A DNA stretch of 64,000 nucleotides from Allacma fusca. Its lineage: Eukaryota; Arthropoda; Collembola; Symphypleona; Sminthuridae. The notes beneath the pieces are model-generated. The model was not told the DNA's origin and ran no database searches. It saw only the letters and a program-made list of their open reading frames with translations. Shown piece by piece: positions 9,481-64,000 of this stretch; the first letter of the stretch is position 1, and each line of letters starts with the position of its first letter. The stretch is taken from contig OX359245.1 of NCBI GenBank assembly GCA_947179485.1, forward strand, positions 34,459,067 through 34,523,066, written 5' to 3'. The position numbers and the translations under genes were made by a program.

Positions 9481-10060
9481 GCTCACTGAAAATGTTGTTA
9501 CCTTTCTGATTTCTAAAATTGTCAATGCATTGAAAATGTTTCGTTCCGTTTCCAAAAGCAGAACGTCGGATTTCTAAAAATGCAAAGGTAGCTCCTGGTT
9601 GTATATATTAAACTATAAACTATGGATTTAAGCGGAATACGTATTAGACAGTTCTCATTAGTAGGGCTTGTTGATTTTTAAATGCATTAGGTATTTTGCA
9701 TGCCCGGTATTTTTTGCCAGCAGCAAGGCATAAAAACAATTAATGCCTTCACATCGCCCTTAAAAAAAAGCCGGGCAAAAAGGCAAAAAATGATCTAGAC
9801 TTGCAGGGTATGTTGAACTTCAGTATTGTTCCATGAGGAAATCAAACCTGTTAACCAGATTCAACAACATTGAATACGATTTCGTCGGTTTCATTTTCAT
9901 CGCAGAAATATACAAACGCTCCCAAATCGTGTAGTCTTAAATTGCCGGAATTGTTACGGAATTGTCTTTCAATATCCACTGAAGCTTCCTTGAACATTGA
10001 TGTGGGTATTGTGCATTTAACTGTATGCTTTCTTTGAACATAATAAAACAAATATATATA

Positions 10061-10540
10061 TTTTGTGGAAACAGTTTGTTTCTATCATGGTATCACGTAA
10101 TCCAGTTTTAAATGATTAAAATTATCAAATTCGTGATATGAAAAACTCTTTGCCTCTTTATAATCAATCCGTACTGGTCGGAATTCAAGTTTTGTAAATA
10201 GCTGCTCCGTTGAGCACCATGGATATTGAGATGTAACCATCTCTTTTCCAAAAATCAAACATTGAATTATTTCGAGCAGCAATTAAAGTTGAGAAAGAAT
10301 ATTTTTATTTTCTACGTCAATCTTCATTCTGCCACTGACGGTTCACGAAGTCAGTCGCTAGTCATTTTTTTCTGTTTGCGCTGTACTGACGAGTCCCAAA
10401 TAGGACGAAACACCGGTGTCTGCAGCTAACAAGGTTTCTGGTCTTAAGTATCAACTGTTAGTGGTCGCCAGAATTAATCCTTTTGTGGAAACAGTTTGTT
10501 TCTATCATGGTATCACGTAATCCAGTTTTAAATGATTAAA
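10061..10540 (+). mobile_element. Retrozyme-like element with 60-bp terminal direct repeats
   Basis: The 60 bases at 10061-10120 are repeated without a visible change at 10481-10540. This gives a 420-bp period, i.e. one full unit plus a 60-bp partial second unit in head-to-tail order. A hammerhead ribozyme fold lies at 10373-10431, about 50 bp before the second repeat. Flanks are AT-repeat sequence on both sides, so a target duplication (ATATATA) is possible but not diagnostic. No open frame has a product. This partial-dimer plan with a type I hammerhead is known from animal retrozymes and from Penelope-like element terminal repeats. Which of the two this is cannot be told here. A diverged relative is at 63501-63672. 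Confidence 0.7.
10373..10431 (+). ncRNA. Type I hammerhead self-cleaving ribozyme
   Basis: Every conserved core position can be placed. Stem I is 10380-10385 (GCTGTA) with 10421-10426 (TGCAGC), including one G-U pair. It extends beyond a 3x1 internal loop by 10373-10376 with 10428-10431 (TGTT/AACA). The core CTGACGA is at 10386-10392. Stem II is GTCC 10393-10396 with GGAC 10403-10406 and a six-base loop. GAA is at 10407-10409. Stem III is ACACC/GGTGT at 10410-10419 with almost no loop, followed by C at 10420. Cleavage is expected after the GTC, between 10420 and 10421. Short stem III with open stem I is the form seen in animal retroelements. Folding was done by hand and activity is untested. 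Confidence 0.82.
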
Positions 10541-11007
10541 AATATATATTACATTTTACATTACACGTTCTAGAATTTGAGCCCGAAACTTCGTTCCAGT
10601 GTAACCAGATTATATTTTCCAGTCGTCCCCTCGTTTTGGTTACCATATAACTGACAGTAAGATAAGATGGCGATAAACCCCAGAAAATTAAACTAATACA
10701 AACGAGTGTATACTCAAACAATATTCAGTTCGATGCGTTTTGACTTGCTACTACGTGCATTGAGAAACCGGTACTTTGCAAGTGTTACACATTTGAAAAT
10801 TATACATGGTTGGAGCAAGCACCAATGATGGCGGAAATAGAGCCTTCCATGAGCATCGCTTATTAATGCCAATTTTGCCAATGCAAAATATATTATATGC
10901 CAATTCTGCCAGAATGGCATAAAAAATCATTTTATACCCATGTGAATAAATGCCCTAAATGCATACCAAATATGCCTGCCTAATTTGTCATTTACCCTAT
11001 TCATTAG

Positions 11008-33212: not shown

Positions 33213-36200
33213 TAGGGAATGTCGATTGAAAATGCCCTCTCATATATGCCTGCCAAGCTGAATATGCCCAAAATGCCTGCCAACGTGCCATATTTTTGGG
33301 CATATTGGCACATTGGGAAAATGCCCTGAATTTGGGCATTTTCGGCAGGGCATATTCGGTATTTTGGGCATTTTCAGCCGAAAATATTAAGCAAATCTGG
33401 TAGGTAAAACACAGCAATGCAATCACATCAAAAATGCCACTATTCACTATTACAATAAAATCTTCGAACTTCATTAAAAAGGGGCGACATGTCAATTCAG
33501 CTTGAAAGAATTTTATTTCAAAATATGCTCGACGTGTATAATACAGTCGACGATTAAATTGACGATTCAAATTCTGTTGCTTTTTGTATTAAGCTATTCA
33601 GGAGACTCTAGTTCTTCTCGCGTGTATGCTTCTTCAATGATAAAAGCGTCCTCAAAAAAATCCTCCCCATCAGAACTCTGATTAGTAGAACTTTCATCCT
33701 CTGCAGCCGTTGCTTCGTCTTCGGCTGAAATGATATTGGCGAAAATGAAATTTCTCAAATCAACGTTTTCTGAGAAGTACTTCGTTGTTTTCTTCTTTTC
33801 AGCTCTTTTAAGGGCCCACTTTATTTTCACAACTTTCTCGATCTTGATCTCCGGGAGACGGTTTCGAGTTTTTGTGTGAACCCCGGACTGCACCGAGAAA
33901 CTTCTTTCAGCCCCTGCTGAGCTCGTGGGAATGGAAAATAAGCGCAAAGCATATTTCGATATCAGACTCGCTTGAGAAAATGCTGACATATTTCGCCAAT
34001 ATACCAACGGATCATAACTGGAAAGCATTTCAACTGCAAAAATACCCTTCTTGAGCCGAAACAGGGTCAATTGGTTAGCCAGCTCTGATTTTTCGGCAAA
34101 AGAGGAAGCGATTCCACATTCAGAAGCCATCGAGTCCATAGAAGATAAAGTTTCGACAAGTTTGTCCTCATTCCCCATAAACAGTTTTCCACGATAGCGC
34201 GGATCAAGAAGGTTTGCTACATTATAGAAACTGGGGAAATTATTGCTGCTCAATCTTGACTTGAAAATAGTTTTAACTTTGCCCCATTCCGTGGATGTTA
34301 ACAACGTTGGGCACAAAAATTTGATACTTGCTTCAGATTCCTCAGTCAATCGATTTGAAAACAAACCAATTATTTCTGTGATATCAGAGAGTTTTGTTGA
34401 ATCTTTTTCAATAAAGGAAATGCCTGAAAATAAACAATGATGACAACGTCTACTAAAATCTTCTACGCCTACGAAAATATTTTTGAAATGCCGACCACAT
34501 TTTAATGAATATAAAAGATTATTCCTTACTTTTAAGAACTGGAGAAAGGAACAAGAATGCCTGGTTAAGTTTCTGCCAGAATACGTCGTCTTTGATAGTG
34601 TTGCGGACAGTAGCACACAAATTGATTTCGGGATCAATCGCCATTCTTAGTAAGACATCTTTTGATTTCCGAAGTTTTAGCATCATATCGCGGTAACCAA
34701 ACTAACGCATATCCGAAGGGAGTGTCAATGAAACTGGAGTTAATTTTCGACCCTTCAACTGCTGCTCGTCTCTGTACTTTACAAACTCCTCCTTGAAGAA
34801 CTTCAGTTTATTTTTGGATCCTTTGATTTCAGTTACAATGGCACGGCCTTTTTTAAGGACGGCATTTAAGCTAGGAAGTTTTGTTAAATCCTTTGCCAAA
34901 AGATTAAATACATGGGCTCAACAGGTAACAGAGAGGATGCTTGGAATCCTTTTGTGGAACTCTTTCCGGGCTTTCAAGTAGTTGCCACCTTGGTCACTGA
35001 TAATTGCAACAATCTTTTCTACTCCAATCTCTTGTATAACAGGTTCCAGGTGATTCATAATGGTAAGGTAATCCTGGGGCTCTGAGCCTGCATTGAATGT
35101 AAAATTGTACATTGTACTTATAAATAAGATTTAATTAAGAAAAAAGTAACAACGTTTTTTCACACAAAAAGGACGGCATGAGTATGAAAATAAGAGATAT
35201 TACAACAATATGGTACCTGTTTCAAAACTCTTGTACAAAATTCGGGATTCTGTGGTAGACAGTAGAATATTCATGACACCAAGTCCAGCAACATTTTTCC
35301 ATGAATCAACTTCTATTGTAACAAAGTCCATATCTCGAAGCTCGTTCTGAATGTTAACATTTACTTTGGTTGCGATGGAATTCAGCAAAGACCCGGAAAG
35401 AACTCTAGGCGAAGGAATTTTGAACCCACTCCCCAATTTTTCAAAAAATTCTTGCAGGTAAGGATCACTTGTCCAATTAAATGCGATGTTTCCATTTAAC
35501 ATGGACTTTGCAAAAAGAATTTCTAATTCACTTTGTTTTACTTTGGAAATTCTTGACACATCCAATTTCATCTGTTTAAAAGGGGGCTGTTCGGATAATA
35601 ATATCCTGGAGCATGAAGGGTTTGAATCCTTTTGTAAATCGGTGCTCGCTTCGCCACAACTTGCTTCACTATCGTAATCTTCTTCGAGAACGTGTATCTC
35701 TACTGGCAAAAGAGTTTTTTGAGCAGCCTCATGAAACTCTTTTCGAACATTTTTGTCCGCTCTGGTGCACTTCGATGTATGCGATTTGCATTTAACTGCA
35801 TGCTTGCGCTGTTTATTATCACAGTAATTGCACTTAACCAGATGTTCTGTTGACCCCTGGACAGTAGTCCAGTGCAACCAAATTTTGTCACCAGCACGTG
35901 GCATAGTTTATTCCAAAATGTAAGCTTTATTTGATTACAAAATTAAAACCGATTCTGTAACAATTTCGACGTTGAAATGCTTAACCACCAGCCAAGTACC
36001 AACAATGGCTAGCAGTTGTTCCTACAAGTAAGTAACTCCTACAAGTGTATACTGACCAGACTTACTTGTATGGTAAAAACGTCGAGTTATCGTTTTGAGT
36101 TGCGAGTGGAAGTAGCTGTAGAAACCAATAACGTATGAAAAGGTAATCGACCGGAGAATTTGAATTGAATATGCCCAAAATGCCAAATATGCCCGGGAAT

Positions 36201-52682: not shown

Positions 52683-53200
52683 ATAGTATAGTTTTATTAT
52701 AGTATAGTATTATTTTACGTTATAGTTTTATTATAGTATAGTATTATTTTACGTTATAGTTTTATTATAGTATAGTATTATTTTACGTTATAGTTTTATT
52801 ATAGTATAGTATTATTTTACGTTATAGTTTTATTATAGTATAGTATTATTTTACGTTATAGTTTTATTATAGTATAGTATTATTTTACGTTATAGTTTTA
52901 TTATAGTATAGTATTATTTTACGTTATAGTTTTATTATAGTATAGTATTATTTTACGTTATATTTTTATTATTATAGTATAGTATTATTTTACGTTATAG
53001 TTTTATTGTAGTATAGTATTATTTTACGTTATAGTTTTATTGTAGTATAGTATTATTTTACGTTATAGTTTTATTGTAGTATAGTATTATTTTACGTTAT
53101 AGTTTTATTGTAGTATAGTATTATTTTACGTTATAGTTTTATTGTAGTATAGTATTATTTTACGTTATATTTTTATTATAGTATAGTGTTATTTTACGTA
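52683..53200. repeat. 34-bp tandem satellite, about 15 units
   Basis: The unit reads TTATAGTTTTATTATAG followed by TATAGTATTATTTTACG. Units in the first half are nearly identical. From about 52990 a variant with TTATTGTAG takes over, showing two homogenised sub-arrays. One unit near 52965 has a 3-bp ATT expansion. The last unit is degenerate. Confidence 0.92.
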
Positions 53201-53289
53201 ATGTTTTTAAGAGCGAAGCGATATAATGGAATGATCACGGTTCTGACCTTGTGGACACTAAGGCTTCAATGCTATTCAACTTACAATTA

Positions 53290-62547: not shown

Positions 62548-63500
62548 TAATTGGCTTTTTTACAATTTTGAAGTATATATTTGGTGGTTTATTTAGTCGA
62601 GTCGTGGAGTGTTGTGCAACATAATAATGTCATGTTATATAGTCATACTTCGTCAAAATTTTTATGGTTGCACTGCACTCCCTTTTCCTCTTTGAAACTC
62701 ACAAAAGATTCGAATTCACCTAATCAAGCACATGTACATATGTAATTTAGAACAGACATACTATAGTGCATGTATACCCAGAATTTTAACAAACCTGTTT
62801 TGTCTCTGTTATAATACGATTTCGACTCTGCTTTTTCTGAACATTTTCAAAAATAGCAGCACAAACTATTCCCATCCCACCGATAGGGAATACTATAATT
62901 GTTAAAATCCCAACATAATTAAAAATTATTTTTGAAAGTCATTCTTCTCAGTGAGACAAATCCAGACCATGAACGGTTAATTTAACAATATTAATTACTC
63001 CAAAGTATATTCGCCAATCCCAGTTCCGGTAAAAACTGGCAATTTTGATGGTTGGTAAGAGCTATGTTTTATATTATATTTATACTTATATAATTTCCCT
63101 ACTATTATCTGATTTGGTGTGGATATGAAAAAGTCTGAATAAATCCAAAAGTACAAAGGATAGAAGCAAGTACAATGTTTAGTTTAGTCCAAACCGTTAG
63201 TGGTAACCCGGAATCAAATTTTGATCTAAATTTACGGGTTTCCAAAATATTGATCGCGAAATTTTGAAAAAAAAACCCTCAATTTTGGACTATTATTTCG
63301 GGACATCTTTGCGATTTCCTGACGTACTTACTATAGTAAGTACCGTAGAATAAAGTGCAATACCTCGATCGAACCGCCTTAGTAACCCCTTAAAACCTTG
63401 CAATCATGTACGGATTCAAAATTGTGATAGGAAATGTTAAAAAAATCTTCAATTTTGTAGCGTTTTTTTTTAAATATTTGCTTAAAGTAAAAAAATAGAT
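62548..63500. other. Intergenic, nothing recognised
   Basis: AT-rich. CAATTTTG-containing words recur at 63,279 and 63,450 but no bounded element is seen. Confidence 0.4.
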
Positions 63501-63672
63501 TTTTTCCTGTTTGCGCTGTAATGGCGATTCCCAACTAGGACGAAACACTGGTGTATGCAGCTAACAAGATTTCTAGTCTTAAAGTATCAACTGTTAGTGG
63601 TCGCCAGATATAAGCCTTTTGTGGAAACAGTTTGTTTCTATTATTTTATCACGTAACCAGTTTTAAATTAAA
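63501..63672 (+). repeat. Relic of the retrozyme-like element with a mutated hammerhead
   Basis: It aligns with 10366-10540. Stem I (GCTGTA 63515-63520 with TGCAGC 63556-63561) and stem III (ACACT/GGTGT) are kept. The core reads ATGGCGA in place of CTGACGA, stem II loses its first pair (T with C), and the cleavage-site base is A in place of C. Changes at core C3 and A6 should abolish cleavage. No second terminal repeat is present, so this is a partial, dead copy. Confidence 0.7.
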
Positions 63673-64000
63673 AAATTATTTTATATTTACATATTTATAC
63701 CTAGAAGGAATCCCCTGAGACCTGGCCCTCCCCCCTCAGGATAGTCATTTTATGACGGAGTTCTTATAAGTATTTACAAATTTAAACAAAATTTAAGAAC
63801 ACCAAACGATCCTTACGAGCAGGATAGAGGGTTGCGATATATAGGTTACACTTCGTTGAGTAGAGCGCATTTTTGATAATTAGCTCATGATAATCTGATA
63901 ATCAGATTTGCAGATATCCCATCCCGTGTTAAAGTTGAACGAAAGAGGAGGGCTTATGGGGTACCAAAACATAAAAACCTGGGAAATTTAAAAATTAAAG
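63673..64000. other. Window end, nothing recognised
   Basis: A short GC-rich run (CCTGGCCCTCCCCCCTCAGG) at 63720-63739 is the only compositional oddity. No feature could be supported. Confidence 0.4.

What the first reader, a model, noticed from the sequence alone, without database searches (positions are those of the whole stretch)
10373..10431. Complete type I hammerhead ribozyme in an unannotated repeat
All invariant core bases are present: CTGACGA at 10386-10392 and GAA at 10407-10409, with stem II GTCC/GGAC. Stem III is ACACC/GGTGT, stem I is TGCAGC/GCTGTA, and GTC sits at the cleavage site 10420/10421. Distal stem I re-pairs (AACA/TGTT) after an internal loop, the layout that supports loop-loop contacts in natural ribozymes. 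That many matches arising by chance is very unlikely. The short closed stem III is the type known from animal retrozymes and Penelope-like elements.
Basis: partly seen in the sequence, partly recalled or inferred. Interest (0 to 1): 0.92.

Follow-up and report, generated by a model that had tools for sequence, protein, structure and literature searches.

The report
Self-cutting ribozyme in a jumping element
The window holds a genuine hammerhead ribozyme inside one copy of a small non-coding jumping element (a retrozyme); such elements are known from many animals, and the added interest is that its insertion scars fit its being pasted in by the genome's own Penelope-like retrotransposon.

Summary
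The ribozyme is real: Rfam Hammerhead_1 matches window 10380-10426 (+) at 46.8 bits (cut-off 34), E 6.4e-9, with the core bases in place. It lies in a 420-nt unit present as 1.15 tandem units (10061-10545) with a 10-bp target-site duplication. The same 392.7-Mb genome holds at least 69 hammerhead matches and 122 places with a 25-nt word of the unit. Of 68 copies examined, 66 end at one internal point (unit 415-420), 121 nt past the cleavage site. Their 5' ends are truncated anywhere, and lengths thin out sharply after 1.16 units. Tandem parts within a locus differ by 0.95%, against means of 1.9-8.7% between loci. The scars fit reverse transcription started inside a circular (or multimeric) RNA. 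The genome also has a young Penelope-like element (849-aa ORF, RT + GIY-YIG) whose copies end at a fixed internal point too. Both families show a T-rich zone 10-20 nt downstream; one LINE family tested does not. Mobilisation by this element is likely but unproven. Self-cleavage and circular RNA were not testable.

The parts
10061..10545 (+). retrozyme copy, 1.15 tandem units of 420 nt (last letters overlap the target-site duplication)
10380..10426 (+). type I hammerhead ribozyme (RF00163)
10373..10431 (+). hammerhead with outer stem I (UGUU/AACA)
10420..10421 (+). predicted cleavage site, after GTC (unit 295/296)
   Evidence: position by the known hammerhead rule, not tested
10061..10125 (+). 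upstream partial unit (direct repeat)
10481..10545 (+). 3' end of the full unit (direct repeat); family-wide 3' end at about 10540-10545
10050..10059 (+). target-site duplication, upstream copy (AAATATATAT)
10540..10549 (+). target-site duplication, downstream copy, overlapping the element's terminal A-run
63499..63680 (+). second, 5'-truncated copy (unit 239 to about 418) with a broken ribozyme core (CTGACGA reads ATGGCGA)

Best explanation
One copy of a non-autonomous, non-coding, non-LTR retrozyme. Shown: a complete hammerhead; a 420-nt unit dispersed over all six large contigs; a fixed internal 3' end; 5' truncation; target-site duplications; partial and near-complete dimers with near-identical units; a young resident Penelope-like element. 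Inferred: loci with two ribozymes (five found) are transcribed, the ribozymes cut out 420-nt monomers, a host ligase closes them into circles, and the reverse transcriptase/endonuclease of the resident Penelope-like element cuts AT-rich DNA next to a T-tract. It primes inside the circle near the A-rich foot of a predicted hairpin (unit 413-420), copies round the circle, and stops early, or after 1.0-1.16 units, or rarely near two. My odds: retrozyme identity 0.95; circular or multimeric template 0.75 (circular 0.6); Penelope-like partner 0.6. The confidence below is for the whole account except the named partner.
For: Hammerhead. Family: at least 69 matches, 122 word matches, 0 with the word reversed. 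3' end at unit 415-420 in 66 of 68. Duplications: score 7.5 or more in 29 of 68 against 21 of 334 mismatched flank pairs. Thirteen of 65 spans at 428-486 nt, one at 487-580, six longer. Tandem parts in 13 loci differ at 18 of 1904 positions, between-locus means 1.9-8.7%. Two exact ribozymes 420-421 nt apart in four loci, and one in each half of a fifth, split locus. Penelope-like element. T zone at +10 to +20: retrozymes 0 of 5000 rotations, Penelope-like 2 of 5000, LINE 3370 of 5000.
Against: No RNA data. Lowest-energy fold of the ribozyme and of the circle is not the hammerhead (forcing it costs 5.4 kcal/mol). Ribozyme columns are not significantly less variable than the rest: 25 of 1878 against 2.2%, 127 of 363 windows as low. 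No sequence shared with the Penelope-like element. The fresh nine Penelope-like flanks alone are not significant at +10 to +20 (1201 of 5000), and T peaks of the two families differ by a few positions. The LINE control is one family, n=14, with imperfect tail trimming. Five starts at unit 356-361 could mark a linear transcript's 5' end.
Confidence: 0.72

Rival explanations
1. SINE-like element: a linear RNA of about 485 nt, starting near unit 356 and ending near unit 416-420, is the template; the ribozyme is a passenger or trims transcripts, and no circle is involved.
For: Five of 68 copies start at unit 356-361 and the span distribution drops just after 486 nt.
Against: Six further copies stop 8-22 nt past one full unit, six exceed 580 nt up to two units, and tandem parts are near-identical. 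A single ribozyme in such an RNA would cut it.
Confidence: 0.2
2. Same retrozyme, but mobilised by a LINE of the genome, not by the Penelope-like element.
For: 5' truncation, duplications of 9-19 nt and an A-run at the 3' end are usual for LINE-type insertion (general knowledge). LINE reverse transcriptases are present.
Against: The T zone is absent after one LINE family, n=14. The retrozyme's 31-nt tail word occurs 76 times, fewer than the 122 of the inner word, so no abundant second family shares it at that stringency.
Confidence: 0.3
3. Satellite DNA with a hammerhead, spread by unequal exchange.
For: Hammerheads occur in a satellite DNA of cave crickets (PMC2837043, search listing and start of abstract only).
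Against: Copies are dispersed, mostly single, 5'-truncated, end at one point and bear duplications; the longest among the 68 is about two units.
Confidence: 0.03

Closest known systems
Metazoan non-LTR retrozymes (Cervera and de la Pena 2020, PMC7229834)
   Same: Type I hammerhead in a small dispersed repeat with partial or full dimers, no LTR, duplications longer than 4 bp, low G+C, co-resident Penelope-like elements.
   Different: Unit of 420 nt is slightly above their about 170-400 nt RNAs (within their 150-450 bp repeats); near-complete circles with one fixed internal 3' end are documented here; expression unknown.
Penelope-like elements (PMC11167929, parts 1-2 of 4 read)
   Same: Hammerhead upstream of an internal initiation point, fixed internal 3' ends, tandem or partial-tandem copies, AT-rich targets.
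   Different: Those encode RT and GIY-YIG and carry minimal hammerheads; this element has no stop-free frame over 71 codons and a canonical hammerhead.
Plant LTR retrozymes (PMC4918200, search listing; features as described in PMC7229834 and PMC7761336)
   Same: Non-autonomous, ribozyme-processed, thought to pass through circular RNA.
   Different: Type III hammerhead, LTRs, 4-bp duplications.

Membership tests
Hammerhead ribozyme, type I (RF00163) | covariance match over the whole model above the curated cut-off, with invariant core | tested here: met
   46.8 bits, cut-off 34, model 1-45 of 45; core bases
Hammerhead ribozyme, type I (RF00163) | self-cleavage after the GUC | not testable with these tools
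   needs transcription in magnesium
Hammerhead ribozyme, type I (RF00163) | loop-loop tertiary contacts | not tested
   an internal loop in stem I is present; no three-dimensional test was made
Metazoan non-LTR retrozyme | type I hammerhead in a repeat of 150-450 bp, many copies | tested here: met
   420-nt unit, at least 69 matches
Metazoan non-LTR retrozyme | tandem (dimeric or longer) copies | tested here: met
   13 loci with repeated parts; five loci with two ribozymes; none longer than about two units among 68
Metazoan non-LTR retrozyme | non-coding, G+C below 50% | tested here: met
   G+C 36.7%, longest stop-free frame 71 codons
Metazoan non-LTR retrozyme | duplications longer than 4 bp | tested here: met
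   9-19 nt in 28 copies, median 12
Metazoan non-LTR retrozyme | no LTR, primer-binding site or polypurine tract | tested here: inconclusive
   no LTR layout in the 68 copies; no dedicated search for the two short motifs
Metazoan non-LTR retrozyme | co-resident Penelope-like elements | tested here: met
Metazoan non-LTR retrozyme | highly self-paired circle | tested here: inconclusive
   -91.3 kcal/mol, z -1.88, 2 of 60 shuffles as low; 58% of bases paired
Metazoan non-LTR retrozyme | expressed as linear and circular RNA | not testable with these tools
   no RNA data
Penelope-like element | ORF with reverse transcriptase and GIY-YIG | tested here: not met
   no frame over 71 codons in the window copy; works beside such an element, is not one
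Plant LTR retrozyme | type III hammerhead and 4-bp duplications | tested here: not met
   type I is the best clan match; duplications 9-19 nt

The most novel reading that the evidence does not exclude
The retrozyme is mobilised in trans by the resident Penelope-like element: its GIY-YIG endonuclease cuts beside a T-tract, its reverse transcriptase starts inside the circular ribozyme RNA, goes once round and stalls when it meets its own start. That would link animal retrozymes to a named enzyme and make 1.0-1.16-unit copies a footprint of circular templates.
Probability: 0.45. Interest if true: 0.65.

Novelty: new member of a known kind. Interest (0 to 1): 0.42.

Why it matters
Which enzyme moves animal retrozymes, and whether circular RNA is the template, stand as proposals in the papers I read (PMC7229834 Discussion; PMC7761336 passages). 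This genome offers a tractable case: roughly a hundred copies, a young Penelope-like element with long reading frames, and insertion scars that can be read statistically. The copies end at an internal point unrelated to the ribozyme cut, and lengths thin out just past one circle. Both can be tested with one purified protein and one RNA.

Tried and rejected
Purifying selection on the ribozyme: its columns are not significantly less variable than the rest, so no claim is made. An optional 3' 'tail' as in Penelope-like elements was at first suggested by two copies (L019, L038). L019 proved to be one half of a retrozyme split by a LINE, L033 being the other half; only L038 remains, and the idea was dropped. 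Shared sequence with the Penelope-like element: none. Rfam on that locus: no hammerhead up to E 10, although a CTGANGA..GAAA arrangement is visible at L092:645 (judged by eye). PDB relatives of its protein: none at E 0.01. One exact hammerhead pattern in viral contigs and one exact word of the unit in bacterial/archaeal genomes: 0 matches each.

Limits. The genome search counts are lower bounds (74 of 49186 candidates scored; 40 of 444; 40 of 308). Three of the 69 hammerhead places were not fetched. Copies were found through the ribozyme or through long matches, so short copies without the ribozyme are under-sampled, and the absence of starts at the cut site among the 68 is largely built in. 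The fair test is the 13 extra loci, where 11 have unclipped starts and the nearest to the cut (295/296) are 294 and 298. The T zone at +10 to +20 was noted in retrozymes before Penelope-like flanks were fetched; +13 to +18 was chosen after seeing data. In that test I dropped the retrozyme rows L065, L078, L077, L019, L038, L062, L068. Penelope-like flanks were cut at L092:740 even where the match ended a few letters away, and four or so of the 14 LINE flanks kept tail-like letters. Dropped from the within/between comparison: L058, L062, L068, L077. For the 65 spans I removed L019, L033, L065, L078, L058 and put in two spans reckoned from coordinates (854 for L019+L033, 323 for L058). The tree was shown without support values.

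Full report
OBSERVATION. Core bases are at the stated coordinates. Rfam's Hammerhead_1 model matches 10380-10426 on the + strand over its full length with 46.8 bits (cut-off 34), E 6.4e-9 for the 64-kb window, where it is the only match at curated thresholds; in 3 kb, E is 3e-10. The stretch from CUGACGA through stem-loop II to GAAAC equals the family consensus. Stem III is 3 bp closed by CCGG, since ACACCGGUGU is a palindrome that cannot close with 5 bp in cis. Energy folding alone prefers another structure (native -10.3, best -14.0 kcal/mol for 59 nt; z -0.22 for 73 nt). The case for the ribozyme thus rests on the covariance model and on its recurrence, not on stability.

THE ELEMENT. A 65-nt direct repeat (10061-10125 and 10481-10545, spacing 420) shows that the ribozyme sits in 1.15 units of a 420-nt repeat, G+C 36.7%, with no stop-free frame over 71 codons. 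A 10-bp duplication AAATATATAT flanks it at 10050-10059 and 10540-10549. The window lies in a genome of 392.7 Mb in 91 contigs. From its size, its six very large contigs and a hAT transposase remnant in the window I infer an animal, probably an arthropod; no tool named it. The genome has 69 hammerhead matches (64 over cut-off, 44 of equal top score; a lower bound), and none of 14 control genomes has one. A 25-nt word of the unit occurs 122 times with up to three mismatches and 0 times reversed. A second copy in the window (63499 to about 63680) has two changed core bases.

ANATOMY OF 68 COPIES. Copies came from the hammerhead search and the 420-nt search plus the window, 68 after removing overlaps, lying on all six large contigs and C48. 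By BLAST segments 66 of 68 end at unit 415-420, where the unit reads ATTAAAA(TTAT). The exceptions are L019, explained below, and L038, which ends near unit 43 with a good duplication. Five-prime ends fall anywhere from unit 262 downwards and on into a second unit; spans run from 157 to 848 nt. Duplications of score 7.5 or more are found in 29 of 68 copies against 21 of 334 mismatched flank pairs, and of score 11 or more in 11 of 68 against 0 of 334; median length 12 in 28 of them. In 24 clear cases the duplication tends to end in AT and to be followed by a purine and a T-tract (T 50-75% at positions +2 to +10).

WHAT THE LENGTHS SAY. After merging duplicates and split copies 65 spans remain. 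Thirteen lie between 428 and 486 nt (1.02-1.16 units), one between 487 and 580 (L068, which has an internal deletion), and six beyond. Six of the thirteen stop 8-22 nt past one full unit; five start at unit 356-361. Each of the 68 copies runs upstream across the ribozyme cut at unit 295/296, so none of these was copied from a monomer cut there; but most copies were found through the ribozyme, so this says little about how common cut templates are. Among 13 further loci chosen because they were not yet held (one insertion counted twice), 11 have unclipped starts, from 211 to 298, with 294 and 298 nearest the cut and none exactly at it. The template of the copies seen is a circle or an uncut multimer. 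The pile-up just past one unit favours a circle; a linear RNA starting near unit 356 is kept as a rival.

ONE TEMPLATE PER LOCUS. In the 13 loci with repeated parts the two parts differ at 18 of 1904 positions (0.95%); the same columns differ between loci by means of 1.9-8.7%. For short overlaps other copies are often as similar (up to 31 of 63 for L020); for the five overlaps of 140 nt or more, 0 to 5 other copies are. The two parts thus come from one unit, as expected of a polymerase going round a circle; a homogeneous dimer source is not excluded. Nineteen columns carry variants shared by at least three of 40 copies, none of them within the 47 ribozyme columns; overall variability there is not significantly reduced. 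The copies of 463-486 nt fall in at least four places of the tree (no support values), so their length is not one inherited state.

TWO-RIBOZYME LOCI. L011, L013, L024 and L047 carry two exact ribozymes 420-421 nt apart. A fifth is the pair L019/L033: the tree groups them, L019 stops at unit 49, L033 begins at unit 35 about 5 kb on, and next to L033 lies a LINE end with RVT_1 and a (TTGAA)n tail; the shared unit 35-49 is its 15-nt duplication. The middle of that LINE was not read. Only such loci could release a 420-nt monomer by themselves (inference).

THE LIKELY PARTNER. The genome has 59 GIY-YIG matches, 20 of them in stop-free frames of 500 codons or more. [quoted passage not shown] Of 40 scored hits to its 5' region, 95-100% identical, 30 stop at L092 735-748, about 13 nt inside the ORF, and 10 run on. 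Its copies thus also end at a fixed internal point. PMC11167929 (parts 1 and 2 of 4 read) reports that a lizard Penelope-like enzyme starts reverse transcription inside its RNA at AT-rich targets. From ribozyme cut to initiation it is 85-92 nt there (reckoned from its text) and 121 nt in the retrozyme (10420 to 10541). That paper also found unprocessed RNA to be its dominant substrate and HHR cleavage unnecessary in vitro, which speaks for caution about the role of cleavage here.

A TEST OF THE LINK. I noted a T-rich zone 10-20 nt downstream of retrozyme insertions before fetching Penelope-like flanks. Retrozymes, n=61: T 0.487 at +10 to +20 against 0.308 at +22 to +45, 0 of 5000 rotations as high. 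Penelope-like, n=29: 0.448 against 0.309, 2 of 5000 (first 20: 0 of 5000; fresh 9: 0.394, 1201 of 5000). LINE, n=14: 0.338, 3370 of 5000. Window sites after ATTAAAA, n=66: 0.309, 4569 of 5000 (all). At +13 to +18 the fresh nine give 230 of 5000. The profiles correlate (r 0.50) but peak a few positions apart. This supports a common endonuclease without proving it; the LINE control is one small family.

COMPARISON AND NOVELTY. The defining features of metazoan non-LTR retrozymes that I could test (PMC7229834: abstract, Results parts 1 and 2 of 3, Discussion read) are met, except that self-pairing and the absence of primer-binding and polypurine motifs are inconclusive; RNA-level features were not testable. 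That paper and PMC7761336 (passages seen) already propose circular intermediates and Penelope-like partners, and the former lists insects among hosts, so the kind is known. In searches for retrozyme with target-primed reverse transcription, with Penelope and tandem repeats, and with GIY-YIG or target site duplication, the listings showed me no paper on insertion-site evidence linking a retrozyme to a Penelope-like element; most listed papers were not opened, and the library is open-access only.

VERDICT. The finding is real and correctly read. It is a new family of a known kind, with insertion scars that make the mobilisation question testable.

Noticed in passing
L092 1-3601 (G000 C10:10138700-10142300): Tandem Penelope-like element, 849-aa RT + GIY-YIG ORF, repeated parts identical over the 300 nt reported; a CTGANGA..GAAA hammerhead-like core at L092:645 that Rfam does not score.
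   Followed up: partly
G000 C8:17850905-17856730 (L019, L033): A two-unit retrozyme split by a LINE of about 5 kb with a (TTGAA)n tail and a 15-nt duplication.
   Followed up: yes
G000 C1:62.96-63.97 Mb (L065, L066, L078 and others): At least 15 copies of one word on the same strand within 1 Mb; the three fetched share the same downstream flank, so a retrozyme seems to ride in a larger duplicated block.
   Followed up: partly
L058 2641-3674: A retrozyme interrupted by a nested insertion of about 700 nt flanked by a 10-nt repeat of unit 205-214.
   Followed up: no
L034 about 1476-1500; L024 about 1174-1196: Filler of 23-25 nt between the upstream duplication and the 5' end of the element, rich in short A/T repeats.
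   Followed up: no
window 33594-34637 (-): Remnant of a hAT transposase (Dimer_Tnp_hAT, 2.5e-8).
   Followed up: no
window 52687-53207: A 34-nt tandem array of 15 copies, 96% matches.
   Followed up: no
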